From assembly GCA_030426665.1 (NCBI GenBank), contig JAUHYD010000005.1:62001-126000 (forward strand): 64,000 bases of DNA. The letters are read 5' to 3'. Origin of the DNA: Bacteroidia bacterium (GTDB taxonomy: Bacteria; Bacteroidota; Bacteroidia; Chitinophagales; Chitinophagaceae). Below are positions 38,379 through 54,496 of this stretch, one piece after another. The notes beneath the pieces are model-generated. The model was given only the letters and a program-made list of their open reading frames with translations. It was not told the DNA's origin and did not search any database. Both the position numbers and the translations under genes were made by a program. Numbering within the stretch: position 1 is the first letter of the stretch; each line of letters starts with the position of its first letter.

Positions 38379-38735
38379 TTATTTCTTTTTCATTTCCTTT
38401 AATAACATTTCCAGGTCTTTCACAGACAACTGTTTTTCGTCTACCAAAAACGAAACCACATTACTGAATGACCCCTCGAAGTATCCCTTTGCAAACCCTT
38501 TTAGCGTTGCCTTGGAGTATGCCTCCTTACTTACCACGGGATGGTACCGAAAACTCCGACCAATACTCTCTGTTTTCACAAACTCCTTTTCAACCAATAT
38601 TTTCAGAATGGTAGCTACCGTGTTCTTGTGCGGTATCGGTTCCGGCATGGCTTCTACAACCTCCATAAGTAGCCCAGATTCCAGCTTCCACAGTACTTTC
38701 ATTACCTGCTCCTCTGCTTTTGTGAGTGTCTTCAT
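38379..38735 (-). CDS. BlaI/MecI-family transcriptional repressor
   Basis: A 118-residue winged-helix repressor. MKTLTKAEEQVMKVLWKLES is the conserved N-terminal helix, PHKNTVATILKILVEKEFVK the recognition helix and wing, and the C-terminal helices (SFSNVVSFLVDEKQLSVKDL) form the dimer. The BlaI cleavage site, an Asn-Phe pair in the dimer helix, is not obvious; a SFSNVVSF segment lies in that region. In the paradigm the M56 peptidase of the partner protein triggers cleavage of the repressor and relieves repression of the operon. It is the first gene of the unit, followed after four bases by the M56/amidase gene, and is preceded by a perfect promoter overlapped by a palindrome, indicating autoregulation. 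Confidence 0.93.
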   Translation of the reverse strand: MKTLTKAEEQVMKVLWKLESGLLMEVVEAMPEPIPHKNTVATILKILVEKEFVKTESIGRSFRYHPVVSKEAYSKATLKGFAKGYFEGSFSNVVSFLVDEKQLSVKDLEMLLKEMKKK

Positions 38736-38953: not shown

Positions 38954-41176
38954 TTATGACACATAATACATCTTCATCGCCCCCTTGCCCTTCGCCTCTA
39001 CCTCGCCCCGATACTCACAAGTAAACCTACCCTTTACCAATTCATACGTACTCTGCGAAATATTTATCTTTCCTGCTTCACTGTTCTGCTCCATGCGCGC
39101 TGCGGTGTTTACTGTATCGCCCCATATATCGTAGGCAAACTTCTTTACCCCAACTACTCCCGCTACTACGCTACCGCTGTGTACGCCTATACGTACTTCA
39201 AAAGTCCGCTCTCTTCCCAGTTTTGCTAGTCGGTCACTCATGAAGGCAGTTATTTCCTTTGCCGCGCTTACTGCATGCTGTGCATGTTCCGGGTCAGCGG
39301 TCGGTAGCCCTGCTACTGCCAGATAAGCATCACCAATCGTCTTTATCTTCTCTATTCCGTACTTATTCGTTATCTCATCAAACGCTTTAAAACAGGTGTG
39401 CAACTCATCTATCAGCGCCTGCGGACTCATGCTTTCACTTGCCTGCGTAAAATTGACAAAGTCGGTAAACAGCACCGTTACATTGTCGTAATGATTGGCA
39501 GATGTAACTCCTTTGGCTTTCAACTCCTCAGCAACTTCTTGCGGTAAAATATTCAGCAACAATCCGTCCGACTTCTTACGCTCCATTTCCGACTTCCTAC
39601 GCTCCTTAAAAATGAAGAACGAAAAGCCACCCAGCAGCAAAACACCCGCAATACCGGCATAAGTGTAGCTTTTCTGCCTTTGCAGCTCTACACGAGCTTC
39701 ATTTTGCTGATGTGCTACTTTCAGACTATCAGTCAGCCGCTGACGCTCGTACTCATTTCTCAAACTCATTTTTAGTATCTCTTCTTTATTCTCTTGCGAG
39801 AATAGTGAGTCTGTTATGGCGTGGTAGTTGTCAGATGCAACCATGGCTTTTCTATATTCGCCTTTTAGTATGTATGCCTCCGTCAGAGCATGGTAGCATA
39901 TCTGCATTTTGACCAGCTCTTTTATCTCTTTAGAAATTACCAGACTTTTTTGTAAGTAGTCCATGGCTGCAGATAGAAGTGCGACCCTGCCTTGCGGGAT
40001 AATTGTACTATGCTCAAACCCGTTTATTGGCAGGGTGCTATTTTCGACGGTTTTATCGAACTGTGATCGTCGTGGCACTACACCCGAAGACCTGTCTTTA
40101 ATAATATCGAGATATAAGATTCCTAAACTGCTCATGTGTTTTGCTTCCCAAGCCGTTTCTCCGAGTTTTTTACTTAGTGCCAGACCTTTTTTGAAATATG
40201 CTGCGGCCTGAATATAATTTTTCTGTTTTGCATAAACTTCACCTATATTTCCGTACACAACTCCCAATATACCTACCGCCCCCGCTTCGTTTGCTAGATT
40301 CAAAGACATGTGATAATATTCCAGAGCTTTAGAGTAATCCTTGAACCCTTCGTCATAGACTGACCCGATATTGACTAATATCATCGAGGTTCTTTTCTTG
40401 TCTCCTATCTCTTCCATCACCTTACAAGCTTTCAAAAAATATTCAAGGGCTTTTGGGTAATTATCCTGAGACCAAAATATATTACCAATACTTGCGGTGG
40501 CATTCGCGGCCCTGCCTTTGTCACCGACCTCTTCGAATAACGTTAAGGCCTTAAAGAAATTGGCCAGAGCGTTGGGAAGATTACCCTGGTTCATCTCTAT
40601 ATTACCTATATTGCAAATGGTGCCGGCAATACCGCCTTTATTTCCTGTTTCTTCAAATAACTCTTTCGCTTTAGAATAATGCTTTAAGGCTTTGGGGTAG
40701 TTAGCCTGTTGAGCATAAATATTACCAATGGCATTTGCAAGAGTAGGTACACCTTGCTTATTTCCAGTTTCTTCATATAGCTTCAATGCCATTGAATAAT
40801 ACTTTATGGCACTTTGGTAGTCTGACATAAGTTCATAGTTGCTTCCAAGGTGGTAACACGCCCCAGCCATACCAAATTTCCAATTTAATTTTTTAGATAA
40901 CTCCAATTCAGCCATCCCATATTTAATACCCACCTCAGCATTGATACTGGCATACATATTTGATAGCTTGTTAAGCAATAATACCTTATTAGTGTCTTCC
41001 TTTTGCCTCGGCAGCTCTTTGAGTAAGGAGTCTATTTTAGCCTGACCATGCAGTTGGGCTGAGCAATGAATAGTTAATAGTGAACAGAGAACAATTAACA
41101 GCAAATAGCTAACAGTAGACAGTGTTGTTCCTGTTCGCTTTTTCATGGTGAGTAGTATAATCAGAATTCGTTTCAT
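38954..41176 (-). CDS. TPR-sensor membrane adenylate cyclase, array copy 1
   Basis: Last gene of a seven-gene tandem array. The 740-residue product has a basic, hydrophobic export leader (VSYLLLIVLCSLLTIHCSAQ), TPR repeats of 40 residues from about 50 to 420 (consensus GIAGTICNIGNIEMNQGNLP NALANFFKAL type), a coiled coil, one membrane helix (about 504-523), a transducer segment with LLLNILPQEVAEELK (about 538-552) and a class III cyclase domain (562-740). All catalytic positions of an adenylate cyclase are present: metal-binding Asp572 (VLFTDFVNF) and Asp616 (KTIGDAYL), adenine-selecting Lys612 and Asp683 (YDIWGD), transition-state residues Asn690 and Arg694. The product should make cAMP in the cytoplasm in response to something recognised by the periplasmic TPR part. 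Sixty bases separate it from copy 2. Confidence 0.9.
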   Translation of the reverse strand: MKRILIILLTMKKRTGTTLSTVSYLLLIVLCSLLTIHCSAQLHGQAKIDSLLKELPRQKEDTNKVLLLNKLSNMYASINAEVGIKYGMAELELSKKLNWKFGMAGACYHLGSNYELMSDYQSAIKYYSMALKLYEETGNKQGVPTLANAIGNIYAQQANYPKALKHYSKAKELFEETGNKGGIAGTICNIGNIEMNQGNLPNALANFFKALTLFEEVGDKGRAANATASIGNIFWSQDNYPKALEYFLKACKVMEEIGDKKRTSMILVNIGSVYDEGFKDYSKALEYYHMSLNLANEAGAVGILGVVYGNIGEVYAKQKNYIQAAAYFKKGLALSKKLGETAWEAKHMSSLGILYLDIIKDRSSGVVPRRSQFDKTVENSTLPINGFEHSTIIPQGRVALLSAAMDYLQKSLVISKEIKELVKMQICYHALTEAYILKGEYRKAMVASDNYHAITDSLFSQENKEEILKMSLRNEYERQRLTDSLKVAHQQNEARVELQRQKSYTYAGIAGVLLLGGFSFFIFKERRKSEMERKKSDGLLLNILPQEVAEELKAKGVTSANHYDNVTVLFTDFVNFTQASESMSPQALIDELHTCFKAFDEITNKYGIEKIKTIGDAYLAVAGLPTADPEHAQHAVSAAKEITAFMSDRLAKLGRERTFEVRIGVHSGSVVAGVVGVKKFAYDIWGDTVNTAARMEQNSEAGKINISQSTYELVKGRFTCEYRGEVEAKGKGAMKMYYVS

Positions 41177-41242
41177 TGTTCGCCCTGTTTTAGAATGTCT
41201 TAATTAACCGTATTTACAAATGGTCACTGTTCACTATTAACT
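41072..41242. repeat. Inverted repeat bracketing the start of cyclase copy 1
   Basis: AGTTAATAGTGAACAG at 41072-41087, inside the leader-coding part of copy 1, is the exact inverse complement of CTGTTCACTATTAACT at 41227-41242, which covers the stop codon of copy 2. In a transcript running through both genes the 16-base arms could pair and enclose the intergenic region and the copy 1 start codon. Related, shorter pairs occur at the junctions of copies 3/2 (near 43345 and 43490) and 5/4 (near 47890 and 48065). Confidence 0.6.
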
Positions 41243-43435
41243 GACAAAGTACATCTTCATCATTCCCTTACCCTTTGCATCCACCTCACCCCGGTATTTA
41301 CATGTAAACTTATCCTTCACTAGTTCATACGTAGTTTGCGATATGTTTATTTTCCCTGCCTCGCTGTTCTGCTCCATGCGGGCTACGGTATTCACCGTAT
41401 CACCCCATATATCGTAGGCAAACTTCTTTAAACCTACTACCCCTGCTACCACGCTACCACTATGTATGCCCACCCGAACCTGGAATGTTCTTTCTGTACC
41501 CATTTTCGCTAACCTATCGTCCATAAATGCAACTATATCTTGCGCTGCATTCACAATATTCTCGGCGTGTTTAGGGTCAGCAGCGGGGAGACCGGCTACG
41601 GCGAGGTAGGCATCGCCGATAGTTTTTATTTTTTCGATGTTATACTTCTCTGCTATCTCATCAAACTTCTTGAAGCAGGTGTGCAACTCATCTATTAAAT
41701 TCTGTGCGCCCATGCTTTCACTGGCTTGGGTGAAGTTGACAAAATCGGTGAAGAGTACCGTTACATTATCATAGTGCTTGGCGGTAGTTATGCCTGTATT
41801 TTTCAGTTCAGTTGCTACTTCCTCCGGCAATATATTCAGGAGCAAGTCATCGCTGCGTTGCTTCTCCTTACCCAGAAGTTTGTTATTTCGGACCATGAAG
41901 ATAGAAAATATTGCTAGTGCCAGTATACCAACGAACCCCATCCACGTATAGGAGCGCTGCCTCTGATACTTAAGAGCCGCTGCCTTTTCTTTCTTAGCAT
42001 TGACAAGTTTAAGTGAATCTTCCTTGAGGGTAAAGTCATACTTCATTTGTTGTTGCAAAATCTTTTTGGCATTGTCAATCGAGAATAAGGAATCATGAAA
42101 TCGGACATGTTGCATATAGTCCTCAAGGGCATTCTTATAGTCTCCCCGCAATGAGTCCGCATAAGAAAGCTCTCTATAGAAATTCTGCAATTGATTGAGG
42201 CTGCCAATCTCTTTACTGATGGTTATCGCTTCTCTATAATATGTTACTGCTTTATCAAGAAGCGCCTTCCTTCCTGTCGGTATTAACGTGTCGGGCAGGA
42301 AAGGTGCTTCAGGCAATTCTAAGTCAATTGAAACCTTTGATTTATCTGCCGGGTGGGTAGCGATACCGACAAAGTTTGAAGCTAGCCCTGCATAGTCAAC
42401 TGCTTCAACTTCTCTATTCCCAATAGCTTGCGCCAACTGTAATGATTTATAATCCCAGGCTATTGATTGCGTATAATTTTGCTGGTGATAATAAATACCA
42501 CTAATGTTACCGGTTGTAATCGCTTCACTTCGCTTGTCTCCCAGTTCTTCATCTATTTTTAGCGCCTTGAAATAGTACTCCAGTGCTTTTGGATAGTTTT
42601 TTTGGTGTTGATATACAGTACCCATATTACCCCCAAATACTGCTATTCCCCTTTTATGTTCTAATCGTTCAAACATATTAAACGCTTTTTCGTAGTAACT
42701 GAGTGCCACCGAATAGTCTTCCTCGTCAAAATATACAGCCCCAATACTGCCAGTATTAATGGCGATTCCTATTTTGTTACCCATTTCCTGATTTATTTTT
42801 ATCGCCTTGTGATAATACGATAGTGCTATCGGTAATTCATTTTTGCTTCTATGAACATTCCCGATGTTGCTATAGACAATTGCTAATGAGGCTTTGTCCC
42901 CTGTTCTTTTCAGTATTTTTATAGCTCTATCATAGTATTCAAGAGCCTCGGCATAATTGTTAGTTTCGGCATTGATAAGACCGATATTAATATTGCTATT
43001 AACTATGCCTTGGTCGTCACCAAGTGCTTCGAATAATGGCAGACATCTGTGAAAACATTCTAACGCTTTTGAGAATTCAGCTTTACGCCAATGGCAAAGA
43101 CCTATCGTGAGAGATGTCCTTGCTATCCCTTTCTTCCAGCCTATCTTTGTGGCTGTTTCCAATGCTTGAAGACCGTATTTTAAACCGTCATTGGGATTTT
43201 CGTTGTTTTTGTATTCTTTAGACAGTCTATAGAGAATGTTTACCTTATTGGAGTCTTCCTTTTGTTTGGGCAGATCCTTTAGCAGCGAGTCTATTTTAGC
43301 CTGACCATGCAGTTGGGCTGAGCAATGAATAGTTAATAGTGAACAGAGAACAGTTAACAGCAAATAGCTAACAGTAGATAGTGTTGTTCCTGTTCGCTTT
43401 TTTATGGTGAGTAGTATAGTCAGAATTCGTTTCAT
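41237..43435 (-). CDS. TPR-sensor membrane adenylate cyclase, array copy 2
   Basis: The 732-residue product has the same plan as its neighbours. The leader (residues 1-40) is almost identical to that of copy 1, including MKRILTILLTIKKRTGTTLS. The TPR part (about 50-420) is clearly different in sequence, with units such as NYAEALEYYDRAIKILKRTG and ELPIALSYYHKAIKINQEMG. The membrane helix and transducer are the most divergent of the array (SYTWMGFVGILALAIFSIFM and RNNKLLGKEKQRSDDLLLNI). The cyclase domain (554-732) keeps Asp564, Lys604, Asp608, Asp675, Asn682 and Arg686, so it should be an active adenylate cyclase; one unusual substitution is TVARM for TAARM next to the catalytic Arg. Fifty-nine bases separate it from copy 3. 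Confidence 0.9.
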   Translation of the reverse strand: MKRILTILLTIKKRTGTTLSTVSYLLLTVLCSLLTIHCSAQLHGQAKIDSLLKDLPKQKEDSNKVNILYRLSKEYKNNENPNDGLKYGLQALETATKIGWKKGIARTSLTIGLCHWRKAEFSKALECFHRCLPLFEALGDDQGIVNSNINIGLINAETNNYAEALEYYDRAIKILKRTGDKASLAIVYSNIGNVHRSKNELPIALSYYHKAIKINQEMGNKIGIAINTGSIGAVYFDEEDYSVALSYYEKAFNMFERLEHKRGIAVFGGNMGTVYQHQKNYPKALEYYFKALKIDEELGDKRSEAITTGNISGIYYHQQNYTQSIAWDYKSLQLAQAIGNREVEAVDYAGLASNFVGIATHPADKSKVSIDLELPEAPFLPDTLIPTGRKALLDKAVTYYREAITISKEIGSLNQLQNFYRELSYADSLRGDYKNALEDYMQHVRFHDSLFSIDNAKKILQQQMKYDFTLKEDSLKLVNAKKEKAAALKYQRQRSYTWMGFVGILALAIFSIFMVRNNKLLGKEKQRSDDLLLNILPEEVATELKNTGITTAKHYDNVTVLFTDFVNFTQASESMGAQNLIDELHTCFKKFDEIAEKYNIEKIKTIGDAYLAVAGLPAADPKHAENIVNAAQDIVAFMDDRLAKMGTERTFQVRVGIHSGSVVAGVVGLKKFAYDIWGDTVNTVARMEQNSEAGKINISQTTYELVKDKFTCKYRGEVDAKGKGMMKMYFVS

Positions 43436-43494
43436 TGTTTACATGTTTTAGAATGTCTTAATTGAACGTATTTGCAAATCGTCACTGTCCACTG

Positions 43495-45711
43495 TTAACT
43501 GACAAAGTACATCTTCATCATTCCCTTACCCTTTGCATCCACCTCACCCCGGTATTTACATGTAAACTTATCCTTCACTAGTTCATACGTAGTTTGCGAT
43601 ATGTTTATTTTTCCTGCCTCGCTGTTCTGCTCCATGCGGGCTGCGGTATTCACCGTATCACCCCATATATCGTAGGCAAACTTCTTTAAACCTACTACCC
43701 CTGCTACCACGCTACCACTATGTATGCCCACACGCACTTCAAAAGTCCGCTCTCCGCCCAGCTTGGCTAAACGGTCGCTCATGAACTCGGTTATTTCCTT
43801 AGCCGCGCTTACTACATGCAAGGAATGCTCCGGGTCAGCGGTCGGTAGCCCTGCTACGGCTAGGTAGGCATCGCCGATTGTCTTTATTTTCTCGATGTTG
43901 TACCTCTCTGATATTTCATCAAACTTTTTGAAGCAGGTGTGTAGCTCATCTATTAAATTCTGTGCACCCATGCTTTCACTGGCTTGGGTGAAGTTCACAA
44001 AATCGGTGAAGAGGACGGTGACATTATCAAAGTGCTTCGCTGTAGTGGTGCCCGTGATCTTCAACTCGTTGGCTACTTCTTCAGGTAGTATGTTTAGTAA
44101 TAACCCATCTGATTGTTTCCTTGCTGTCTCAGACTTACCTCGCTCCTTAACTATAAAAAACGAAAAACCTGCCAATAAGAATATTCCCGCCACGCCTAGA
44201 TAGGTGTAGTTTTTCTGTTTTTGCAGATTAATTTTTGCAATTTTCTGCTTTTCTGCCACTTTAAGGCTATCAGTCAGTCGTTGTCTTTCATACTCATTTT
44301 TTATGCCCATTTTCAGAATCTCTTCTTTGTTTTCTTGCGAGAAGAGAGAGTCCTTTATGGCGTGATAGTTATCGCGGGCTTCAAGCGCTCCCTTATAGTC
44401 GCCCAGCAAAGAATCTGCGGCAGATAAGTGGAGGTAGCTGTCTTTCAATTGATTGAGGTCCCCGATATCTTTGTTCATAGCAACCGCCTTGTTCAGGTAT
44501 TCCAATGCTTTATGCAACAGCGCCACCCTGCCCTCCGGTATTAGACCTGCATGACCGGCAGGCAGAGTAGCAGGTTGGTAAGGCGCAGCCTGTAATTCTC
44601 CGGTCTTGATTACGTTGACCGAGCCAGCAGAGTGGGTTACGATACCGATATAATCCCTCCCGATATGCGAAAGCGCAAATGCCTCACCGCTTCTATCCCC
44701 AATTGCTTCAGCCCCCTGTAGCGCCTCAAAATGCCAGGCTACCGCTTGCCTAAAGTTATACAGCCCACTGTAAACTCCGCCAATGTTGCCGGCAATCACT
44801 GTTGTGAGTCTATTATTCCCCATTTTTTCAGAAACTTTCAAGGCTTTAAAAAAATATTCCAACGCCTTGGGAAAATTCCTTTCGTAACCATAGACCGCGC
44901 CGATATGGCAGGTGATTGTTGCGACATCTTCATTATTTCCCACCTCTTCAAACACTTTCAACGCCTTTAAATAATATTCCAACGCCTTGGGGTAATCACC
45001 TATTTCACAATAAACACTACCAATACTGCCGGTACTTCTTGCTACCATACCCCTATCCCCCGTTTCTTCAAAAGTTTTCAAGCATTTAAAATAATATTCT
45101 AGCGCCTTCGGGTAATTACCCTGACGTGAATAAACGTTGCCGATACCGACTGTATTCTTTGCTACCAGTTGCTTTTGTCCAATTTCTTCAGAAATTTTCA
45201 AGGCTCTTAAATAATACTCCAGTGCCTTCGTATAATTGCTTTCGTATTGATAAACATCGCCGATACAGCTAATATTCTTTGCGACGCTTCCTATATTCCC
45301 AATTTCTTCAGAAATTTTCTGGGCTTTATGATAGTACTCTAATGCTTTGGAGTAATCACCCTTTACTTCATAATTAGCCCCAACGGTATTAGTGAGACGT
45401 GCTATTCCTTCTTTCCAGTCCAGTTTTGTGGCTAATACCAGCGCCTGCTTACCGTACTTTATGCCTTTATCTGGGTCATTGTAACTGTATTCCCAGGACA
45501 AGTGGTTCATCAATCTCACCTTATTGGAATCTTCCTTTTGTAGGGGCAGCTCCTTAAGCAAGGAGTCTATTTTAGCCTGCCCTTCCAGCTGGGCAGAGCA
45601 ATGTATAGTGATTAGTGTACAGAGAGTAGTTAACAGTGAATAGTTAACAGTTATCAGTGTTGTTATTGCTCGCTTTTTTAAAGCGAGTGATATGATGAGA
45701 ATGGGTTTCAT
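43495..45711 (-). CDS. TPR-sensor membrane adenylate cyclase, array copy 3
   Basis: A 738-residue protein with export leader, about nine TPR units in a very regular array (QGNYPKALEYYFKCLKTFEE, IGDYPKALEYYLKALKVFEE, ERNFPKALEYFFKALKVSEK), one membrane helix (about 502-521, YLGVAGIFLLAGFSFFIVKE), the transducer motif LLLNILPEEVANELK and the cyclase domain (560-738). Catalytic residues Asp570, Lys610, Asp614, Asp681, Asn688 and Arg692 are intact. The last 60 residues (from GLKKFAYDIWGDTVN on) are practically the same as in copy 2, including the terminal MMKMYFVS that the other copies lack, which points to a recent duplication or gene conversion between copies 2 and 3. The start codon is taken as the first ATG of the leader (MKPILIISLALKKRA). 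Confidence 0.9.
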   Translation of the reverse strand: MKPILIISLALKKRAITTLITVNYSLLTTLCTLITIHCSAQLEGQAKIDSLLKELPLQKEDSNKVRLMNHLSWEYSYNDPDKGIKYGKQALVLATKLDWKEGIARLTNTVGANYEVKGDYSKALEYYHKAQKISEEIGNIGSVAKNISCIGDVYQYESNYTKALEYYLRALKISEEIGQKQLVAKNTVGIGNVYSRQGNYPKALEYYFKCLKTFEETGDRGMVARSTGSIGSVYCEIGDYPKALEYYLKALKVFEEVGNNEDVATITCHIGAVYGYERNFPKALEYFFKALKVSEKMGNNRLTTVIAGNIGGVYSGLYNFRQAVAWHFEALQGAEAIGDRSGEAFALSHIGRDYIGIVTHSAGSVNVIKTGELQAAPYQPATLPAGHAGLIPEGRVALLHKALEYLNKAVAMNKDIGDLNQLKDSYLHLSAADSLLGDYKGALEARDNYHAIKDSLFSQENKEEILKMGIKNEYERQRLTDSLKVAEKQKIAKINLQKQKNYTYLGVAGIFLLAGFSFFIVKERGKSETARKQSDGLLLNILPEEVANELKITGTTTAKHFDNVTVLFTDFVNFTQASESMGAQNLIDELHTCFKKFDEISERYNIEKIKTIGDAYLAVAGLPTADPEHSLHVVSAAKEITEFMSDRLAKLGGERTFEVRVGIHSGSVVAGVVGLKKFAYDIWGDTVNTAARMEQNSEAGKINISQTTYELVKDKFTCKYRGEVDAKGKGMMKMYFVS

Positions 45712-45776
45712 TTTTTACTTGTTATTGAATATTTCTGTTTGCCGTCCTTGCTATCGTCACTATTAACTATCAACTA

Positions 45777-47993
45777 TTAACTAATATAATACATCTTCAT
45801 CACGCCCTTGCCCTTAACTTCTACTTCTCCCCTATACTCACAGGTGAATTTATCTTTCACCAATTCATATGTAGTCTGGCTGATATTTATTTTTCCTGCC
45901 TCGCTATTTTGCTCCATGCGTGCAGCCGTATTTACTGTATCGCCCCATATATCATAGGCAAACTTCTTCACACCCACTACTCCTGCTACCACACTACCGC
46001 TATGGATGCCTACACGCACTTCGAATGTCCGCTCGCTACCCAGCTTCGCTAAACGGTCGGCCATGAAGGCAGTTATTTCTTTGGCTGCGCTTACCACATG
46101 TAGCGCATGCTCCGGGTCATCAGTCGGCAGCCCTGCTACTGCCAGATAAGCATCACCTATGGTCTTTATCTTCTCAATGCGATACTTCTCTGATATTTCA
46201 TCAAACTTTTTAAAGCAAGTGTGCAACTCATCTATCAGCGCTTGCGGACTCATACTTTCGCTTGCCTGTGTGAAGTTGACAAAGTCCGTAAACAGCACAG
46301 TGACATCATCATAGTGCCTGGCAGACGTAATGCCCTTCGCTTTCAATTCCTCAGCTACCGTTTCCGGCAGTATATTGAGCAGTAGCCCGTCCGACTTCTT
46401 CCGCTCTGCTTCCGACTTCCGCCGCTCCTTGAAAACGAAGAACGAAAAGCCACCCAGCAGCAATATACCCGCTATACCTGCGTAGGTGTAGCTCTTTTGT
46501 TTCTGCAGATTTATTCGTGCTATTTTTTGCTCTTCGGCAACTTTCAGACTATCAGTCAGTCGCTGACAATCATAGTCACTCTTCATGCTCATTTTCAGTA
46601 TCTCTTCCTTATTCTCCTGCGAGAATAAGGAGTCTTTTATAGCATGATAATTATCGCGAGCCTCCAGCGCTCCCTTGTAATCGCCCAGCAGAGAGTCTGC
46701 GGAAGAAAGGAACTTGTAGCATGCTCTCAATTGATAAAGATTCTCGATTTCTTTGTTTATAGCTACTGCCTTATTCAGGTATTTCTTTGCGTTTTGCAAC
46801 AGCGCCAACCTACCCTTAGGTATCAGACCAGGCTGCCCGGAAGGCAGATTAGCAGAGTGGTATGGCGCAGACTGCAATTCTAAGGCTTTAGTTATGTTAT
46901 CCGTACCAACAGGGTCGGCAACAATGCTGATATAATCACTTCCTATATTACAAAGGGCATGAGCTTCACTATTTCGAGCCCCTATTGCCTCAACTATCCG
47001 TAATGCTTTAAAGTGCCAGGCTACCGCCTGGGTATAATTATACTGTTCGCTGTAAACAGTACCAATATTGCCCGCAACACGTCCAATTCCAATTTTATCT
47101 CCTATTTCTTCGGAAATTTTCAAGGATTTTAAATAATATTCCAGTGCTTTGGGATAATCCCCTTTTTTTAAAAAAACAGAGCCGATGTTGCCGGAATGCA
47201 TTGCTATTCCAGCCTTAGCTCCGATTTCTTCATCCGCTTTCAAGGCCCTAATAAAATACTCCAGTGCCTTGGGATATTCATTTTCTAAACAATAAATGCT
47301 ACCGATATTGCCGACATTACTTGCTATACCCCTCTTGTCTCCGATTTCTTCAGAAATCATCAACGCCTTAAAATAAAACTCCAGCGCCTTGGGATAATCA
47401 CTCTGGTTTGCATAAACATTGCCGATATTGCCGGTAACTATCGCCACCCCCTTCTTAGTTCCTATTTCCTCTAAAATATTCAAAGCCCTTAAATAATTTT
47501 CTAACGCCTTGGGATAATCACTTTGGCTATCATAAACGATACCGATATTACAGGCAGCTGTCGCTATGCCATTTTTATCCCCTATTTCTTCTGAAATCTT
47601 CAAAGATTTAGAAAAACACTCTAATGCCTTGGGGTACTCCGCTTGTGCGTCATAATTATGCCCAAGTTCACTAGAGGCACCTGCTATTCCTTTTCTCCAA
47701 GTTAACTTTGTTGCCAATTCCAATGCCTGCCGCCCGTATTTTATGCCTTCATCAGAGTCAATATGTCTGTACCCATACGAAATGTCGTTAAGAATATTAA
47801 CCTTGTTGGTGTCTTCCTTTTGTCGCGGTAGTTCCTTGAGTAAGGAGTCTATTTTCGCCTGTCCATGCAGCTTCGCGGAACAGTGGATAGTTAATAGTGA
47901 ACATAGAATAGTTAGTAGTGAACAACTAACAATTGATAGTGTTGCTCCTGCTTGCTTTTTTATGGTGAGTAGTATAATCAGAATTCGTTTCAT
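45777..47993 (-). CDS. TPR-sensor membrane adenylate cyclase, array copy 4
   Basis: A 738-residue member with the same leader type (MKRILIILLTIKKQAGATLS). The TPR part is the most regular of the cluster: successive units repeat YPKALE(Y/N)YLKALKISEEIG and DK-GIA-NIGxVYxxQSD with few changes, suggesting internal unit duplication. The membrane helix is YAGIAGILLLGGFSFFVFKE; the transducer is LLLNILPETVAEELKAKGIT. The cyclase domain (560-738) has the full set Asp570, Lys610, Asp614, Asp681, Asn688 and Arg692. From the membrane helix to the cyclase start it is nearly identical to copy 7, even at LPETVAEELKAKGITSARHY and at DDVTVLF in place of DNVTVLF, although the two genes are 4 kb apart. Seventy-three bases separate it from copy 5. 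Confidence 0.9.
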   Translation of the reverse strand: MKRILIILLTIKKQAGATLSIVSCSLLTILCSLLTIHCSAKLHGQAKIDSLLKELPRQKEDTNKVNILNDISYGYRHIDSDEGIKYGRQALELATKLTWRKGIAGASSELGHNYDAQAEYPKALECFSKSLKISEEIGDKNGIATAACNIGIVYDSQSDYPKALENYLRALNILEEIGTKKGVAIVTGNIGNVYANQSDYPKALEFYFKALMISEEIGDKRGIASNVGNIGSIYCLENEYPKALEYFIRALKADEEIGAKAGIAMHSGNIGSVFLKKGDYPKALEYYLKSLKISEEIGDKIGIGRVAGNIGTVYSEQYNYTQAVAWHFKALRIVEAIGARNSEAHALCNIGSDYISIVADPVGTDNITKALELQSAPYHSANLPSGQPGLIPKGRLALLQNAKKYLNKAVAINKEIENLYQLRACYKFLSSADSLLGDYKGALEARDNYHAIKDSLFSQENKEEILKMSMKSDYDCQRLTDSLKVAEEQKIARINLQKQKSYTYAGIAGILLLGGFSFFVFKERRKSEAERKKSDGLLLNILPETVAEELKAKGITSARHYDDVTVLFTDFVNFTQASESMSPQALIDELHTCFKKFDEISEKYRIEKIKTIGDAYLAVAGLPTDDPEHALHVVSAAKEITAFMADRLAKLGSERTFEVRVGIHSGSVVAGVVGVKKFAYDIWGDTVNTAARMEQNSEAGKINISQTTYELVKDKFTCEYRGEVEVKGKGVMKMYYIS

Positions 47994-48066
47994 TGTTTAC
48001 TTGGATTAGAGTGTCGTAATTGACCGAATTTGCAAATCGTCACTGTTCTCTATTAACTGTCCACTA

Positions 48067-50091
48067 TTAACTAACATAGTACATTTTCATCACCCCCTTA
48101 CCTTTCGCCTCTACCTCGCCCCTATACTCACAAGCGAATTTATCCTTCACCAGTTCATACGTAGTCTGGCTGATATTTATTTTACCTGCTTCGCCATTCT
48201 GCTCCATACGAGCTGCGGTGTTCACGGTATCGCCCCATATATCGTAGGCAAACTTTTTCACCCCCACTACCCCTGCTACCACACTGCCGCTATGTATGCC
48301 TACACGCACCTCAAAAGTCCGCTCTCGACCCAGCTTCGCTAAGCGGTCGGTCATGAACTCGGTTATTTCTTTGGCTGCGCTTACTACATGCTGTGCATGC
48401 TCTGGGTCAGCGGTCGGCAGCCCTGCCACCGCAAGATAGGCATCGCCTATGGTCTTTATCTTTTCGATGTTGTATTGCTCTGATATTTCATCAAACTTTT
48501 TGAAGCAAGTGTGCAACTCATCTATCAGCGCCTGCGGGTTCATGCTTTCACTCGCCTGTGTGAAGTTTACAAAATCGGTAAACAGCACCGTGACATTATC
48601 GTAATGCTTGGCCGATGTGACACCCTTCGCTTTCAATTCCTGTGCAACCGCTTCCGGCAATATATTAAGTAGCAATCCGTCTGACTTTTTACGCTCCGCT
48701 TCTGACTTCCGCCGCTCCTTGAAAACGAAGAACGAAAAACCACCCAGCAACAACACACCTGCAATACCTGCATAAGTGTAGCTCTTTTGCTTTTTCAAAT
48801 TAACCCTCGCTATTTTTTGATCTTCGGCAACTTTCAGGCTATCGGTCAGGCGCTGACGGTCATAGTCATTCTTCATGCTCATTTTCAGTATCTCTTCCTT
48901 ATTCTCCTGCGAGAATACGGAGTCTTTTAGTGCATGATGATAATCGCTAGCCTCCAGTGCTGCCTTGTATTTACCCAATAGTGTGTACGCTTCAGAAAGG
49001 TATTCGTAACTCTTCTGCAAGCCACAAAGGTCACCGACTTCTTCATTTATAACTACCGCCCTTTTGAGATATTCAACCGCCCTATGCAACAGGGCCGATC
49101 GCCCTTTTGGTATTGGTGCATCAAGCTCGTATTGAGCCACCGGCAGTTCTGACTCGTCAGTTACTGTTACCGCACTTCTTGGGTGGGTAACCAAGCCTAT
49201 ATAACTTCCACCGATTCCACTGAGCGAACCTCCCTCAATAGCCTTGTCACCTATTTCTTCTCCAATCCGCAACGCCCTAAAGTGCCAGGTTAGCGCCCTA
49301 ACATGCTCGTGTTGAGCATCATAAACGGTACCAATATTAGCTGTTATATTTCCGACGAATCTTCTGTTCCCAACTCCTTCAGCAGCTTTCAAGCCAGTGA
49401 AGAGATACTCCAATGCTTTCTCGTTATCGCCCTCCTGATTATAAATTGCACCAATACTGCAATAATCCGCAGCGATTCCGTTTTTGTAACCCATCTCTTC
49501 ATCCAACCTTAGCGCTTTAAAACAATACTCCAGTGCGTTTTTATAATCGCCTTGCTCAGAATAAACAAGGCCGATATTCGTGTAGTCTGCAGCAAGATCT
49601 GCCTTCCGACCCAGTTTTTCGTCAATTTTCAAGGCTACGAAATGATACTCCAGCGCTTTAATGTAATCGCTTAACTTTGAATAGGCAATACCAATATTAC
49701 CTGCAGTGATGGCAACCCCTCTTATGTCCCCGTTCTTTTTCGCTAGCTCCATTGATTTAAAAAAACACCCCAACGCCTTAGGACAATCGAACTTGTCCAC
49801 GTAACAATTTCCTAGCGAATTGTATGCTTTCGGCAATTTCGCTTCCCAGCCTTTTTTTGTGCACAATGCGATTGCTTCTTGTGCATATTTTATCCCTTCA
49901 TCAGGGTTAATGTTCTCGTGAGCATTACATAGCCAAATGAGAATATCAATCTTATTAGTGTCTTCATTTTGTCGTGGCAACTCTTTAAGGAGAGAGTCCA
50001 TTTTAGACTGCCAATGCAACTTTGCAGAACAGTGAACAGAGATCAGAGAACAAAGAGCAGCGAGTAGTATAATTAGTTTTCGTTTCATCAT
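48067..50091 (-). CDS. TPR-sensor membrane adenylate cyclase, array copy 5
   Basis: The start is set at the Met pair MMKRKLIILLAALCSLISVH (50091 or 50088); the frame opens five codons earlier with no added signal character. The leader is shorter than in copies 1-4, and the TPR part has fewer units (about residues 40-290), so the protein is about 675 residues. TPR examples: QGDYKNALEYCFKALRLDEE and EGDNEKALEYLFTGLKAAEG. The membrane helix (YAGIAGVLLLGGFSFFVFKE) and transducer (LLLNILPEAVAQELKAKGVT) are as in copies 6 and 7, and all six adenylate cyclase catalytic residues are present in HYDNVTVLFTDFVNF ... EKIKTIGDAYLAVAG ... YDIWGDTVNTAARM. One Ser next to the last motif is changed (EQNGEAGK instead of EQNSEAGK). 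Only 36 bases separate the longest frame from copy 6. Confidence 0.9.
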   Translation of the reverse strand: MMKRKLIILLAALCSLISVHCSAKLHWQSKMDSLLKELPRQNEDTNKIDILIWLCNAHENINPDEGIKYAQEAIALCTKKGWEAKLPKAYNSLGNCYVDKFDCPKALGCFFKSMELAKKNGDIRGVAITAGNIGIAYSKLSDYIKALEYHFVALKIDEKLGRKADLAADYTNIGLVYSEQGDYKNALEYCFKALRLDEEMGYKNGIAADYCSIGAIYNQEGDNEKALEYLFTGLKAAEGVGNRRFVGNITANIGTVYDAQHEHVRALTWHFRALRIGEEIGDKAIEGGSLSGIGGSYIGLVTHPRSAVTVTDESELPVAQYELDAPIPKGRSALLHRAVEYLKRAVVINEEVGDLCGLQKSYEYLSEAYTLLGKYKAALEASDYHHALKDSVFSQENKEEILKMSMKNDYDRQRLTDSLKVAEDQKIARVNLKKQKSYTYAGIAGVLLLGGFSFFVFKERRKSEAERKKSDGLLLNILPEAVAQELKAKGVTSAKHYDNVTVLFTDFVNFTQASESMNPQALIDELHTCFKKFDEISEQYNIEKIKTIGDAYLAVAGLPTADPEHAQHVVSAAKEITEFMTDRLAKLGRERTFEVRVGIHSGSVVAGVVGVKKFAYDIWGDTVNTAARMEQNGEAGKINISQTTYELVKDKFACEYRGEVEAKGKGVMKMYYVS

Positions 50092-50142
50092 GTATTTGCT
50101 TTTCACTATTTAATAATTACCCCCGGCTTTCTGTGTCCACGA

Positions 50143-52188
50143 TTATGCAGACACATAGTACATCTTCATCACCCCTTTACCCTTTGCCTCCACCTCACCC
50201 CTATACTCACAAGTAATTTTATCCCTTACTAAATCATACGTGGTTTGGCTGATATTTATTTTTCCTGCCTCGCTGTTCTGCTCCATGCGGGCTGCGGTAT
50301 TCACCGTATCGCCCCATATATCATAGGCAAACTTCTTTACACCTACTACGCCTGCCACTACACTACCGCTGTGTATGCCTACACGCACCTCAAACGTCCG
50401 CTCCCTACCCAGCTTTGCTAAGCGGTCGCTCATGAAATCGGTTATTTCCTTAGCCGCACTTACTACATGCAGCGCATGCTCCGGGTCGGCGGTCGGCAGC
50501 CCCGCCGCCGCCAGATAGGCGTCACCAATCGTCTTTATCTTTTCTATTCCATACTTATTCGTTATCTCATCAAACTTCTTGAAACAAGTGTGTAACTCAT
50601 CTATCAGGGCCTGCGGGTTCATGCTTTCACTTGCCTGTGTGAAGTTCACAAAATCCGTAAACAGCACCGTGACATTATCGTAATGCTTGGCCGATGTGAC
50701 ACCATTCGCTTTCAATTCCTCTGCTACTGCTTCAGGCAATATATTAAGTAACAATCCGTCCGATTTCTTCCGCTCCGATTCTGACTTCCGCCGCTCCTTG
50801 AAAACGAAGAACGAAAAGCCACCCAGCAGCAACACACCCGCAATACCTGCATAGGTGTAGCTCTTTTGTTTTTTCAAATTAATCCTCGCTATTTTTTGGT
50901 CTTCGGCAACTTTCAGGCTGTCTGTCAGTCTTTGTCGACTATACTCATTTTTCAGCGTTAACTTCAATACCTTCTCTTTATTCTCGCGGGAAAATATTGA
51001 GTCTGACAATGCATAACTGTTTTGCGATGCATTATATGCTTCCTTGTACTGACCACTTAATTTATAAGCCAACGTCAATTGGGTATAACATTCAACTAAT
51101 GCCTTTGGGTTGTCAATACCTTTAACCTTATCGAGTCCCAAATTCAAGTAGTACAGGGCTTGGCGCAACTGCTCTGATCTCCTGTCAGGAATCGATATGC
51201 GCTTACTGCCACTCAAATACTTTTTCTGCTGTACTTCTACATTTCCGCTAGTAGCGCGAATTCCAGCCAAATTACCAACACTATCCTGATAAATTGAAAG
51301 AAAAAGTTTGCCTATCGCCAAATAACCAAGGCCTATTGTAAGCCTGCTTCCAACCTCCTTAGCAACCTCTACTGCTCCTGAATAATAATTTAATGCTGTG
51401 ACGTAGTCCCGTTTTAGCCCATACACCCTCCCTATATCAAGAGACACCCGTGAAAAGCCCTCTTTGTCGCCATACGTATCGCAGAGGACTATATCCTTTA
51501 AGAAGTATTCAAGTGCTGTTTCGTAGTCCTCCTTGCCCTCATATATCGAGCCCAAATTCTTAGTGATTGCAATAACGCCCCCCATATTCTTTTGCTCCTC
51601 GCAATACTGAAGTGCTTTCTGACTATATTCAATTGCTTTATCAAAGTTTGATTGTCGCCAATAAATACCGCCAATATTGGAAGCGACCTTTGCGGCATAG
51701 AGATGATATCCACCTTCTTCATCCAACCGTAGTGCTTCAATTAGGTAGGACAGCCCCTTCACATGGTCATTTTTGTCATTGTATACCACGCCCAAATTAC
51801 ATGTCACAGCAGCTACCCCTTTCTTATTGCCGGCCTCACGGTACACTTTAAGGGCTTTTTCATTAGACGCTATTGCATTTTGATATTCGCCAATAATCCG
51901 ATAATTATGACCCATACTAGAATACCCACGTGCTATTTCAGATTTTATTCCCAGCGTCCGAGCCAGTTCAACCATCTTTTGACCATAATCGACTCCCATT
52001 TCCGGGTTTACATACATACATTCCCATGAAATATCTGCCATCAAATTCAGCTTGGTTGTATCATTGTCTTGAATTGACACCTCCTTAACAAGCGAGTCCA
52101 CCAACGCTTGCCCGTGTAACTGCGCATATGTACTGTAGAAACACAAACAAGATAATATTGTGCAGAGCACTCTTACTAAATATCCCAT
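50143..52188 (-). CDS. TPR-sensor membrane adenylate cyclase, array copy 6
   Basis: A 681-residue member whose N-terminal half is unlike the others: the leader is MGYLVRVLCTILSCLCFYST with cleavage after YAQ, and the TPR units have their own sequence (KNDHVKGLSYLIEALRLDEE, QSNFDKAIEYSQKALQYCEE, KEDYETALEYFLKDIVLCDT). The region just before the coiled coil is also different. From KNEYSRQRLTDSLKVAEDQK onward it rejoins the common pattern: helix YAGIAGVLLLGGFSFFVFKE, transducer LLLNILPEAVAEELKANGVT and cyclase domain (502-681) with Asp512, Lys552, Asp556, Asp623, Asn630 and Arg634. One change near the second metal site, LAAAGLP instead of LAVAGLP, is conservative. The sharp border between unique and shared parts suggests domain shuffling. 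It ends one residue later than the others (YYVSA). Confidence 0.9.
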   Translation of the reverse strand: MGYLVRVLCTILSCLCFYSTYAQLHGQALVDSLVKEVSIQDNDTTKLNLMADISWECMYVNPEMGVDYGQKMVELARTLGIKSEIARGYSSMGHNYRIIGEYQNAIASNEKALKVYREAGNKKGVAAVTCNLGVVYNDKNDHVKGLSYLIEALRLDEEGGYHLYAAKVASNIGGIYWRQSNFDKAIEYSQKALQYCEEQKNMGGVIAITKNLGSIYEGKEDYETALEYFLKDIVLCDTYGDKEGFSRVSLDIGRVYGLKRDYVTALNYYSGAVEVAKEVGSRLTIGLGYLAIGKLFLSIYQDSVGNLAGIRATSGNVEVQQKKYLSGSKRISIPDRRSEQLRQALYYLNLGLDKVKGIDNPKALVECYTQLTLAYKLSGQYKEAYNASQNSYALSDSIFSRENKEKVLKLTLKNEYSRQRLTDSLKVAEDQKIARINLKKQKSYTYAGIAGVLLLGGFSFFVFKERRKSESERKKSDGLLLNILPEAVAEELKANGVTSAKHYDNVTVLFTDFVNFTQASESMNPQALIDELHTCFKKFDEITNKYGIEKIKTIGDAYLAAAGLPTADPEHALHVVSAAKEITDFMSDRLAKLGRERTFEVRVGIHSGSVVAGVVGVKKFAYDIWGDTVNTAARMEQNSEAGKINISQTTYDLVRDKITCEYRGEVEAKGKGVMKMYYVSA

Positions 52189-52287
52189 ACCTATAACTTT
52201 AACAGCATTTAGCTTTCTAAAAACAAGATACCTAATTCCTCAATTACTATATTTCAAATACTACGAAAAGCTACCCTACATTCACCT

Positions 52288-52340
52288 GCGCTTAGGCTCC
52301 GGCGGACACGCCCACCTACGCTGGCGTTCCGGTCGACAGG
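52288..52340. repeat. GC-rich patch, possible dispersed-repeat insertion at the end of cyclase copy 7
   Basis: The stretch GGCTCCGGCGGACACGCCCA and following bases is much richer in G and C than its surroundings and resembles short intergenic repeats of Bacteroidota. It overlaps the 3' end of copy 7, whose last residues (TGTPA) are encoded by it and are absent from all other copies. The interpretation as an inserted repeat is an inference. Confidence 0.35.
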
Positions 52341-54364
52341 TAGTACATCTTCATCCCCCCCTTACCTTTCACCTCTACCTCACCCCTATACGCACAAGTA
52401 ATTTTACCCTTCACCAGTTCATACGTAGTCTGGCTGATATTTATTTTTCCTGCTTCGCTGTTCTGCTCCATTCGTGCTGCAGTGTTTACGGTATCGCCCC
52501 ATATATCGTAGGCAAACTTCTTTACACCTACTACCCCTGCTACCACACTGCCGCTATGTATGCCTACACGCACCTCAAAAGTCCGCTCGCTACCCAGCTT
52601 CGCTAAGCGGTCGGTCATGAACTCGGTTATTTCCTTAGCCGCGCTTACTACATGCAGTGCATGCTCCGGGTCTGCAGCCGGCAGCCCTGCCACCGCCAGA
52701 TAGGCATCACCAATTGTCTTTATCTTTTCGATGTTGTATTGCTCTGATATTTCATCAAACTTTTTGAAGCAAGTGTGTAACTCATCTATCAGGGCCTGCG
52801 GGCTCATGCTTTCACTTGCCTGTGTGAAGTTGACAAAGTCGGTAAACAGAACCGTGACATCATCATAGTGCCTGGCAGACGTAATGCCCTTCGCTTTCAA
52901 CTCCTCAGCTACCGTTTCCGGCAGTATATTGAGCAGTAGCCCGTCCGACTTCTTCCGCTCCGCTTCCGACTTCCGTCGCTCCTTGAAAACGAAGAACGAA
53001 AAGCCTCCCAACAGTAGCACACCTGCAATACCTGCATAGGTGTAGCTCTTTTGCTTTTTCAAATTAATCCTCGCTATTTTTTGATGTTCGGCAACTTTCA
53101 GACTATCAGTCAGGCGCTGACGGTCATAGTCATTCTTCATGCTCATTCTGAGAATTTCTTCCTTATTTTCTTGAGAATACAGCGAGTCCTTGGTGGCATG
53201 GAAATGCTCTGATGCTTCAAACGCATTCTTGTAGTCGCCTTTTAATTTATATGCTTCGGAAAGTGCTTTATTACAAGGCACAAGGTCCACAGGTCTGTTA
53301 AGTTCTCCCATCAACACAACTGCTTTCTGCAAAATATCTATCGCCTCGCTCAGTAACGCACGCTTACCCTCCGGCAAGCGAAAACCGGGAACCAATTCGC
53401 TTATTGAAGTGTTATAATCATGTTCCATAGCACTCAAATCCTGAATCGACGCTCCCTCCTCAGCCATATGAACATACAAAGCACCAAGGTTGCCCAGAGC
53501 ATACGCTTCTTCACTCCTGAAGCCCCCTTCTCGTGCCATCTTCATCGACGCCATCATATAACTGGCAGCTGCCCCATACCGTTTCAATTCCCGATAAACC
53601 ATACCTATTCTAACAGCGACATGTACCGCCCCAATACCATCACTATTTTCTTTAAATAGAATGTAGGAATTCTGATAGTATTCTAATGCTTTTTCATAAT
53701 CAGCCATTCCCTCGAAATAAACAATTCCAATATTGAGATTGTTGGTAGCTTCGCTATGCTTGTTCCCTATCTTTTTGTTCAATTCCAACACTTTCAAATA
53801 AAATTCTAAGGCCTTATCATAGTCATACATATAGAAATATATATTACCTGTGTTTCCGATTGCTTTACTCAACACTTCTTCATATTCCGGTATAGACGGA
53901 GCGTTTTGTACTTTTAAAAAAAACTCAAGAGCCTTCGGGTAATCCCCGGTAGATAAATGTACCCTCCCGATATTATTATACAATTCAAGTACTTTAAGTT
54001 CCTCCCCCAGAGCTCGGTACACACTTATCGCACTATCAAAATACTTTAGCGCAAACGCATAGTCGCCCATCAGCAGACAGTTCATACCCAAACTGTTTTT
54101 AGACAACGCCTTACCTTTCTTCCACCCTAGCCGCTCAGACAATTCCACACCTTGCCGCCCATACACCAGTCCTTCCTTCGGATTCGAAAAGCCAAAGGAC
54201 TCACACACCTTATTTAATAATTTTACCTTATTCGTATCTTCCTTCACATTCCCCAATTCGCTAATAAGCGAATCCGTTAGCAATTGCCCTTGCAACTGTG
54301 CGTCAGCTGTAACAATACTCATGCAAAGCAGGGCCGAAAGCACCCACCTGATAAATGTCCCCAT
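52316..54364 (-). CDS. TPR-sensor membrane adenylate cyclase, array copy 7
   Basis: First gene of the array in transcription order. Start 54364 is chosen because a signal peptide begins there (MGTFIRWVLSALLCMSIVTA, cleaved after DAQ); the frame opens 31 codons earlier with an extra hydrophobic stretch. The product has 682 residues. TPR units are distinct (TGDYPKALEFFLKVQNAPSI, MADYEKALEYYQNSYILFKE), then comes the shared membrane helix and transducer. The cyclase domain (about 499-677) keeps Asp509, Lys549, Asp553, Asp620, Asn627 and Arg631. After the common end MKMYY(L)S five extra residues TGTPA follow, encoded by a GC-rich patch. The gene is divergent from the barrel gene at 54522, with 157 bases between the two starts; no full promoter match was found on this strand. 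Confidence 0.9.
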   Translation of the reverse strand: MGTFIRWVLSALLCMSIVTADAQLQGQLLTDSLISELGNVKEDTNKVKLLNKVCESFGFSNPKEGLVYGRQGVELSERLGWKKGKALSKNSLGMNCLLMGDYAFALKYFDSAISVYRALGEELKVLELYNNIGRVHLSTGDYPKALEFFLKVQNAPSIPEYEEVLSKAIGNTGNIYFYMYDYDKALEFYLKVLELNKKIGNKHSEATNNLNIGIVYFEGMADYEKALEYYQNSYILFKENSDGIGAVHVAVRIGMVYRELKRYGAAASYMMASMKMAREGGFRSEEAYALGNLGALYVHMAEEGASIQDLSAMEHDYNTSISELVPGFRLPEGKRALLSEAIDILQKAVVLMGELNRPVDLVPCNKALSEAYKLKGDYKNAFEASEHFHATKDSLYSQENKEEILRMSMKNDYDRQRLTDSLKVAEHQKIARINLKKQKSYTYAGIAGVLLLGGFSFFVFKERRKSEAERKKSDGLLLNILPETVAEELKAKGITSARHYDDVTVLFTDFVNFTQASESMSPQALIDELHTCFKKFDEISEQYNIEKIKTIGDAYLAVAGLPAADPEHALHVVSAAKEITEFMTDRLAKLGSERTFEVRVGIHSGSVVAGVVGVKKFAYDIWGDTVNTAARMEQNSEAGKINISQTTYELVKGKITCAYRGEVEVKGKGGMKMYYLSTGTPA

Positions 54365-54496
54365 ATATTTCGTTTGAAAACAATATACTGTAAATAAGCC
54401 TAAAATGAGAATATTGATCGTAAAACTGCCTATTGATTGAGTCTGTACCACTACCATCCATTTTCAGTTTTAACAATTTTTCCATTATGCAGCTAC

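What the first reader, a model, noticed from the sequence alone, without database searches (positions are those of the whole stretch)
38954..54364. Seven tandem TPR-sensor adenylate cyclases
Seven consecutive same-strand genes encode export leader, TPR array, one membrane span, transducer segment and class III cyclase. In each copy the two metal-binding Asp, the Lys/Asp pair that selects ATP, and the Asn/Arg transition-state pair are present, so all seven should make cAMP. A bank of periplasmic TPR receptors sharing one output, without any other gene between them, is unusual for a bacterium and may be a signalling array that senses peptides, proteins or wall fragments. That the TPR part is periplasmic is inferred from the leader and single membrane helix.
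Basis: partly seen in the sequence, partly recalled or inferred. Interest (0 to 1): 0.88.

Follow-up and report, generated by a model that had tools for sequence, protein, structure and literature searches.

The report
Seven-gene bank of TPR receptor cyclases
A bacterium of the Bacteroidota carries seven neighbouring genes for membrane receptors that look as if they sense different things outside the inner membrane but all make the same internal messenger, cyclic AMP, and the sensing and messenger-making parts seem to have separate histories.

Summary
In detail: seven same-strand genes (38954-54457) each encode a leader, 40-residue TPR repeats, one membrane helix, a transducing element and a class III cyclase domain with the canonical ATP-cyclase residues. 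It is not unique: the genome holds 28 full cyclase domains and three further three-gene arrays, one relative has at least nine in a row, counts in the genus run from 0 to 29, and tandem copies occur elsewhere in Bacteroidota. No array lies at this place in 12 relatives examined, so the expansion is local. TPR parts are 23-55% identical, silent sites saturated in 18 of 21 pairs; cyclase parts are 81-95% identical, six of seven form one clade, and one pair shows a conversion tract. Best reading: a bank of receptor-type adenylate cyclases made by tandem duplication, outputs partly homogenised by recombination, sensors diverging. None of ten cNMP-binding proteins has the classical cAMP cassette. 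A small HD-domain protein, tied to such cyclases by neighbourhood, co-occurrence and two fusions, is a candidate partner, perhaps the cAMP phosphodiesterase. Nothing is tested biochemically, and no structure could be predicted.

The parts
52316..54457 (-). gene 1 of the array, TPR receptor cyclase, 713 aa (likelier start at 54364)
50143..52188 (-). gene 2, TPR receptor cyclase, 681 aa; TPR part grouped with TPR parts of two other species in one of two trees
48067..50106 (-). gene 3, TPR receptor cyclase, 679 aa (GTG start in the mechanical list; an ATG a few codons downstream is likelier)
45777..47993 (-). gene 4, TPR receptor cyclase, 738 aa; cyclase 95% identical to that of gene 1, TPR only 34%
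43495..45711 (-). gene 5, TPR receptor cyclase, 738 aa; C-terminal part of the cyclase shares a conversion tract with gene 6
41237..43435 (-). gene 6, TPR receptor cyclase, 732 aa; membrane and juxtamembrane part only 29-35% identical to the others, cyclase nearest to two genes at C15 and to gene 5
38954..41176 (-). gene 7, TPR receptor cyclase, 740 aa
54522..55241 (+). divergent outer-membrane beta-barrel protein (OMP_b-brl_2), a flank; found beside gpmI in 6 of 12 relatives' loci, none of which has the array
38379..38735 (-). downstream flank, BlaI-like repressor (named by eye, not scanned) with a promoter-like box of its own
36875..38374 (-). downstream flank, M56 (BlaR1-like) peptidase fused to Amidase_3; at another locus in relative G006

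Best explanation
The seven genes are a bank of receptor-type adenylate cyclases. Each protein is exported by its leader, keeps a TPR solenoid in the periplasm, crosses the inner membrane once, and passes a conformational change through a conserved cyclase-transducing element to a homodimeric class III cyclase that makes cAMP. Different TPR arrays detect different periplasmic ligands, most likely peptides or proteins, and all feed one messenger pool. The bank arose at this locus by tandem duplication. Recombination between copies has kept many of the cyclase halves alike while the sensor halves diverged. Shown: gene structure, residues, array, conflicting histories of the halves. Inferred: topology, dimer, cAMP product, ligand type, shared pool.
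For: Domain content 7 of 7; invariant catalytic residues; the cyclase with its preceding element aligns with solved mammalian adenylate cyclases, among them AC9; PMC9552081 (passages) says that element is indispensable for signal transfer in a chimera. TPR 23-55% versus cyclase 81-95% aa identity. Silent-codon identity in the cyclase is 0.59 within the array, against 0.48 and 0.46 to the same clade in two other species and 0.38 expected. Conversion tract gene 5/gene 6, Bonferroni 0.004 and 0.021. Careful trees of 26 rows: membrane-plus-cyclase data put six of seven in one clade (99/95), TPR data reject that clade (AU p 0.0002). In 36 repeat units the four most variable positions are four of the five concave-side ones. 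Related TPR sensors carry a histidine kinase in L117 and in FimS of P. gingivalis.
Against: No biochemistry and no structure model. In a larger quick tree (60 rows) TPR data did not reject the six-gene clade (p 0.132). Only 1 of 21 gene pairs passes the run test; gene 4/gene 5 diverge evenly over sensor and output, and gene 6/gene 7 cyclases show little excess of shared silent codons (0.42); in the cyclase 4 of 21 pairs, each with gene 6, are saturated at silent sites too. The variability test has no control set of other TPR proteins. No classical cAMP receptor was found among ten cNMP-binding proteins, so the pathway beyond cAMP is open.
Confidence: 0.77

Rival explanations
1. Plain gene amplification: the array raises dosage of one receptor, and the copies are functionally redundant.
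For: Same strand, same domain order, alike output domains.
Against: TPR parts share only 23-55% identity, less than redundant copies would; elsewhere in the genome one sensor (C15) groups with sensors of another species rather than with its array mates.
Confidence: 0.1
2. The TPR part is not a ligand sensor but a docking platform: each protein joins a different periplasmic or outer-membrane complex and reports its state through cAMP.
For: TPRs are protein-binding scaffolds (general knowledge); a divergent outer-membrane barrel lies beside gene 1; the TPR-containing PorW acts in the type IX secretion complex, although its TPR parts were not what bound PorN in the two-hybrid test (PMC8754138, passages).
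Against: The barrel is beside gpmI in 6 of 12 relatives' loci without any cyclase, so it is no dedicated partner.
Confidence: 0.3
3. Whole-gene divergence with stronger purifying selection on the cyclase explains the contrast; no recombination is needed.
For: Catalytic domains are usually more conserved; 20 of 21 pairs fail the run test; the quick TPR tree does not reject the cyclase clade.
Against: Silent codons also differ between the halves; incongruent trees with AU p 0.0002, and for another own-genome receptor (C15) p 6e-7; gene 5/gene 6 tract.
Confidence: 0.15
4. Anti-phage (Pycsar-like) pyrimidine cyclases.
For: Weak PADLOC PycC matches to the cyclase domain (best 2.2e-15, two of the seven scanned).
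Against: The ATP-selecting Lys/Asp pair is invariant (role recalled); leader and TPR sensor; the two flanking genes scanned are no Pycsar effectors; PF00211 is far stronger.
Confidence: 0.02

Closest known systems
Class III adenylyl cyclases (PF00211), e.g. mammalian AC9, AC8 and AC5 (names) and the mycobacterial Rv1625c/Cya (paper listing)
   Same: Catalytic domain, catalytic residues, cyclase-transducing element
   Different: Single membrane span and TPR sensor instead of six or twelve spans
FimS of Porphyromonas gingivalis (NCBIfam NF053520), a TPR sensor histidine kinase
   Same: N-terminal hydrophobic segment, periplasmic TPR array (eight motifs predicted in FimS; 4-6 clear units per protein here), membrane helix, cytoplasmic output
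   Different: Output is a histidine kinase; the match of gene 4 is 114 bits against a cut-off of 600, so not a member
Receptor adenylate cyclases of trypanosomes (GRESAG4; PDB rows 1fx2 and 1fx4)
   Same: Large family with variable outer sensor, one span and conserved class III output (recalled)
   Different: Unrelated sensor; eukaryote; cyclase similarity weak (E 3.9e-6)
Large class III cyclase sets of rhizobia (26 in S. meliloti, up to 32 in Bradyrhizobium japonicum; PMC4222275, passages)
   Same: Similar number of cyclases per genome, receptor-like members
   Different: There a Crp-like regulator (Clr) is known; the passages seen mention no tandem TPR arrays
Beta-propeller cyclases of the same genome (Reg_prop, Y_Y_Y, Guanylate_cyc; C13 and C34)
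   Same: Same output module; the C34 one is 82-86% identical to the array's cyclases
   Different: Beta-propeller sensor

Membership tests
Class III nucleotide cyclase | PF00211 domain above the gathering score | tested here: met
   7 of 7, 184-195 bits against 21.9
Class III nucleotide cyclase | Two metal Asp, transition-state Asn and Arg | tested here: met
   Invariant in 7 and in 61 aligned sequences, of which the first Asp was demanded by the filter; roles recalled
Class III adenylate (not guanylate) cyclase | Lys and Asp that select ATP | tested here: met
   K610 and D681 invariant; roles recalled
Class III adenylate cyclase | cAMP made in vitro, homodimer | not testable with these tools
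   needs protein; structure queue full
Receptor-type TPR sensor protein (FimS-like architecture) | N-terminal leader, TPR array, one span before the output | tested here: met
   TPR and span 7 of 7, N-terminal hydrophobic segment over the cut-off 6 of 7; hydropathy only
FimS (NF053520) | Score over the curated cut-off; histidine kinase output | tested here: not met
   114 of 600 bits for gene 4; output is a cyclase
Classical cAMP-CRP pathway | CRP-type protein with the Glu...Arg-Ser/Thr-Ala phosphate cassette | tested here: not met
   0 of 10 PF00027 proteins match the recalled motif; the motif was not tried on a positive control, and non-classical receptors are not excluded
Classical cAMP turnover | Class II phosphodiesterase PF02112 | tested here: not met
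   no match at E 0.001 in the genome; class III metallophosphoesterases were not searched
Pycsar cyclase | PycC family match with a linked effector | tested here: inconclusive
   weak PycC matches for the two genes scanned; two flanking genes scanned with Pfam are no effectors, other neighbours not scanned

The most novel reading that the evidence does not exclude
The array is a modular receptor bank whose outputs are kept interchangeable by gene conversion so that subunits with different TPR sensors can pair into mixed cyclase dimers, giving combinatorial sensing; its cAMP acts through a receptor that is not a classical CRP, and is removed by an undescribed HD-domain phosphodiesterase family that is found beside, or fused to, such cyclases.
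Probability: 0.15. Interest if true: 0.85.

Novelty: new variant of a known kind. Interest (0 to 1): 0.6.

Why it matters
Receptor banks with one shared messenger are better known from eukaryotes. Here a bacterial lineage has built several from a TPR sensor and a class III cyclase, with signs of recombination between sensor and output. The set offers natural chimeras for asking how a single-span sensor drives a class III cyclase. It also poses a direct question: what reads and what removes cAMP in a Bacteroidota genome that has 28 cyclases but no classical receptor among its ten cNMP-binding proteins. The HD-domain partner is a concrete, cheap test.

Tried and rejected
Assembly artefact: rejected, copies differ throughout. 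Window flanks as dedicated partners: rejected, they occur without cyclases in relatives. Pycsar: judged unlikely. Structure prediction of gene 4 on A2: the queue was full on all 12 attempts, so no model and no fold search. GAF domains as cAMP receptors: 3 found in the genome, not examined further. A YitT-DUF2179 membrane protein pairs with the HD gene in relatives but gave no match in this genome, so it cannot be the receptor here. Sigma-70-like promoter scan: 46 sites against 35.5 expected, uninformative. A first attempt to read the cNMP proteins printed none because of a one-base offset; done again. The repeat search mainly restated the cyclase repeat. My cyclase motif filter caught 27 of the 28 own-genome domains, so the tree lacks the one at C30; one TPR cyclase without leader (C13:103505) was left out by name. 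The six-gene clade for the AU tests was named after seeing the cyclase tree; the 26 rows are a hand-picked subset of the 60. The repeat-unit score cut was raised from 8 to 10 after one search had let in non-repeat stretches. The 196-bit threshold for the HD phylum count was set after seeing the table; weaker matches, many in frames of about 400 aa, also occur in genomes without PF00211.
Full report
WHAT IS THERE. Seven minus-strand genes fill 38954-54457 with gaps of 36, 59, 60, 65, 73 and 127 nt. Read in the direction of transcription they are genes 1 (52316-54457) to 7 (38954-41176). Each product has TPR repeats of 40 residues, one strong hydrophobic span followed by a Lys/Arg-rich stretch, the element SDxLLLNILPxxVAxELK, and a Guanylate_cyc domain; an N-terminal hydrophobic segment passes the cut-off in 6 of 7. 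The six residues that define an ATP-specific class III cyclase (roles recalled) are invariant in all seven and in an alignment of 61 sequences, made of the seven and 54 of 81 relatives from named genomes; the filter that picked these relatives already demanded the first Asp and the transducing element. No minus-strand terminator-like site lies in the six gaps, so one transcript is plausible but not shown.

HOW UNUSUAL. The 4.62-Mb genome has 28 full Guanylate_cyc domains and one fragment. Besides the window array there are runs of three at C15, C5 and C13. 21 of the genome's cyclases, the seven included, have an N-terminal part of 400-620 residues (one without leader was left out); TPR content was checked by Pfam for the seven. 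In 35 genomes of the genus the number of matches per genome runs from 0 to 29, and 30 of 35 have at least one. One relative, G009, has nine in a row, the last about 300 nt from the contig end (Pfam on three of the nine). Of 74 named loci with a motif-positive cyclase, drawn from the best 80 of 580 candidates, 12 hold two or more; L045, a contig of a Bacteroidia bacterium, has five in a row, all with the cyclase and four with TPR at E 1e-10. So the array is a large example of a recurrent Bacteroidota feature. The listings of ten paper searches showed no paper on such TPR-cyclase arrays; of PMC6365617 and PMC9239204 I saw passages, without such arrays. The library holds open-licence papers only.

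LOCAL ORIGIN. I looked at 12 of the 32 relatives' gpmI loci: the beta-barrel gene is beside gpmI in 6 of 12, and none of 12 has a cyclase within 3 kb (some stretches end early at a contig end). The M56-amidase gene on the other side sits at a different place in G006. The expansion here is therefore probably particular to this lineage.

SENSOR AND OUTPUT HAVE DIFFERENT HISTORIES. Between the seven, TPR parts share 23-55% of residues and the cyclase 81-95%; silent sites are saturated in 18 of 21 pairs in the TPR part and in 4 of 21, each with gene 6, in the cyclase. At positions with the same residue, codons agree about as often as by chance in most TPR pairs (0.24-0.58, expected 0.35-0.38) and clearly more often in many cyclase pairs (0.41-0.82 by half domain). 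As a control for codon constraint, the array's cyclases agree with the same clade in G009 and G015 at 0.48 and 0.46, but with each other at 0.59. A permutation test on silent codon columns finds one significant tract, genes 5 and 6, in the C-terminal part of the cyclase (22 columns, Bonferroni 0.004 over juxtamembrane to end, 0.021 in the cyclase alone); the other 20 pairs do not pass. These two genes differ strongly in the membrane part (32% identity). In careful trees of 26 rows, membrane-plus-cyclase data place genes 1-5 and 7 in one clade (99/95), while TPR data reject that clade (AU p 0.0002); a C15 receptor groups by TPR with two receptors of G015 (96/100) while its cyclase rejects that grouping (p 6e-7). 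In a larger quick tree of 60 rows the TPR data did not reject the six-gene clade (p 0.132), and the grouping of gene 2 with two foreign sensors seen there (95) was not recovered in the careful tree, though not rejected either (p 0.219). Gene 6's cyclase is kept out of the clade (p 0.005). I conclude that recombination between copies has homogenised outputs within the array. It is not shown for every pair, and the C34 propeller cyclase, 82-86% identical at protein level, is not a recent exchange by silent sites.

WHAT THE SENSOR MAY BIND. In 36 clear repeat units (4-6 per protein) the helix-A positions 2, 5, 9, 12 and 13, which line the concave side of TPR solenoids (recalled), are more variable than the other non-core positions (3.44 against 2.30 bits, exact p 0.0001); four of them are the four most variable of all, position 5 is ninth. 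Asn stands at position 6 in 19 of 36. This fits diversified ligand surfaces, but no control set was run. The best-scoring NCBIfam model is the TPR sensor kinase FimS of P. gingivalis (NF053520, E 5.3e-33, far below its cut-off). PMC11053733 (passages) reports that five of six clones with altered signalling had single substitutions in periplasmic TPR motifs of FimS, and considers a polypeptide ligand possible. A TPR histidine kinase with 29% identity over 518 residues to gene 4 lies beside cyclases in a relative (L117). Sensors of this kind are thus used with two outputs.

WHAT HAPPENS TO THE cAMP. Ten own-genome proteins have a cNMP-binding domain; one of them is an encapsulin. None matches the recalled phosphate-cassette motif of CRP, which was not tried on a positive control. 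Two of them were compared with solved structures and do match CAP (E 4.6e-21 and 1.7e-16). No class II phosphodiesterase was found; that model also failed its cut-off in all 14 control genomes. The receptor is therefore open.

AN HD-DOMAIN PARTNER. Behind the C15 array lies a 195-residue HD protein, followed by a fragment of a cyclase end; a second copy at C19 has no cyclase in the 12 kb fetched, and the window has none. Among neighbours within 4 kb of TPR-cyclases its family was the most frequent: 13 hits at 12 places, since L038 and L117 are one place, in up to 118 loci examined. In the genus, 27 of 30 genomes with cyclases have it and 0 of 5 without (Fisher p 0.0002, relatedness not corrected). 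Of 37 full-length copies, all that one search listed at 58% identity or more, 14 have a cyclase domain within 3 kb and 23 do not; 0.8 expected; of 12 gpmI control loci none. In the phylum sample 17 of 17 genomes with a match of at least 196 bits, the own genome included, have a cyclase, against 111 of 198 overall. Of 13 of these loci fetched, 7 have a cyclase beside or fused to the HD part and 6 do not. Two native fusions are among the seven: cyclase-HD in 528 residues (L208) and GAF-cyclase-HD (L209). The HD-type His and Asp (roles recalled) are invariant in 12 sequences and fit H(X)3H(X)25-35D/E, which PMC4222275 (passages) gives for one class of phosphodiesterases, though other HD enzymes can fit too. 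NCBIfam and PADLOC gave no family for the own-genome protein, and its only PDB match is weak (3b57, E 0.0058). A cAMP phosphodiesterase is the simplest guess; it is not tested. In 26 of 64 HD loci (some of them duplicates) a YitT-DUF2179 membrane protein is within 3 kb, in 0 of 80 cyclase loci without HD and in 0 of 12 control loci; this genome has no match to YitT.

VERDICT. The mosaic history and the missing or unusual downstream parts are the interesting points.

Noticed in passing
L001:11285-11872 (own genome C15:96284-96871) and relatives: HD-domain protein family linked to class III cyclases by neighbourhood, co-occurrence and two fusions (L208, L209); candidate cAMP phosphodiesterase.
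   Followed up: yes
L179, L183, L185, L212, L213, L215 and 20 further HD loci: The HD gene forms a pair with a YitT-DUF2179 membrane protein, fused to it in L213 and L215; no YitT match in the window's genome.
   Followed up: partly
L014:2093-6128 (own genome C11:92092-96127): Terpene synthase, encapsulin shell protein with a cNMP-binding domain, and a divergent class III cyclase side by side.
   Followed up: partly
window 36875-38374: BlaR1-like M56 peptidase fused to an N-acetylmuramoyl-L-alanine amidase, behind a BlaI-like gene; near full-length matches in 11 other genomes of the genus.
   Followed up: partly
L003:4989-8600 and L006:6872-10516 (own genome C13, C34): Beta-propeller (Reg_prop, Y_Y_Y) receptors whose output is a class III cyclase.
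   Followed up: partly
L117:12572-15489: TPR histidine kinase with a probable response regulator gene (not scanned) right beside cyclase genes, its TPR part related to gene 4.
   Followed up: no
L117:8157-9990: A broken TPR-cyclase copy beside an intact one, left as found.
   Followed up: no
own genome C15:96850-96975: Fragment of a cyclase C-terminal end directly behind the HD gene, perhaps a remnant of a lost array member.
   Followed up: no
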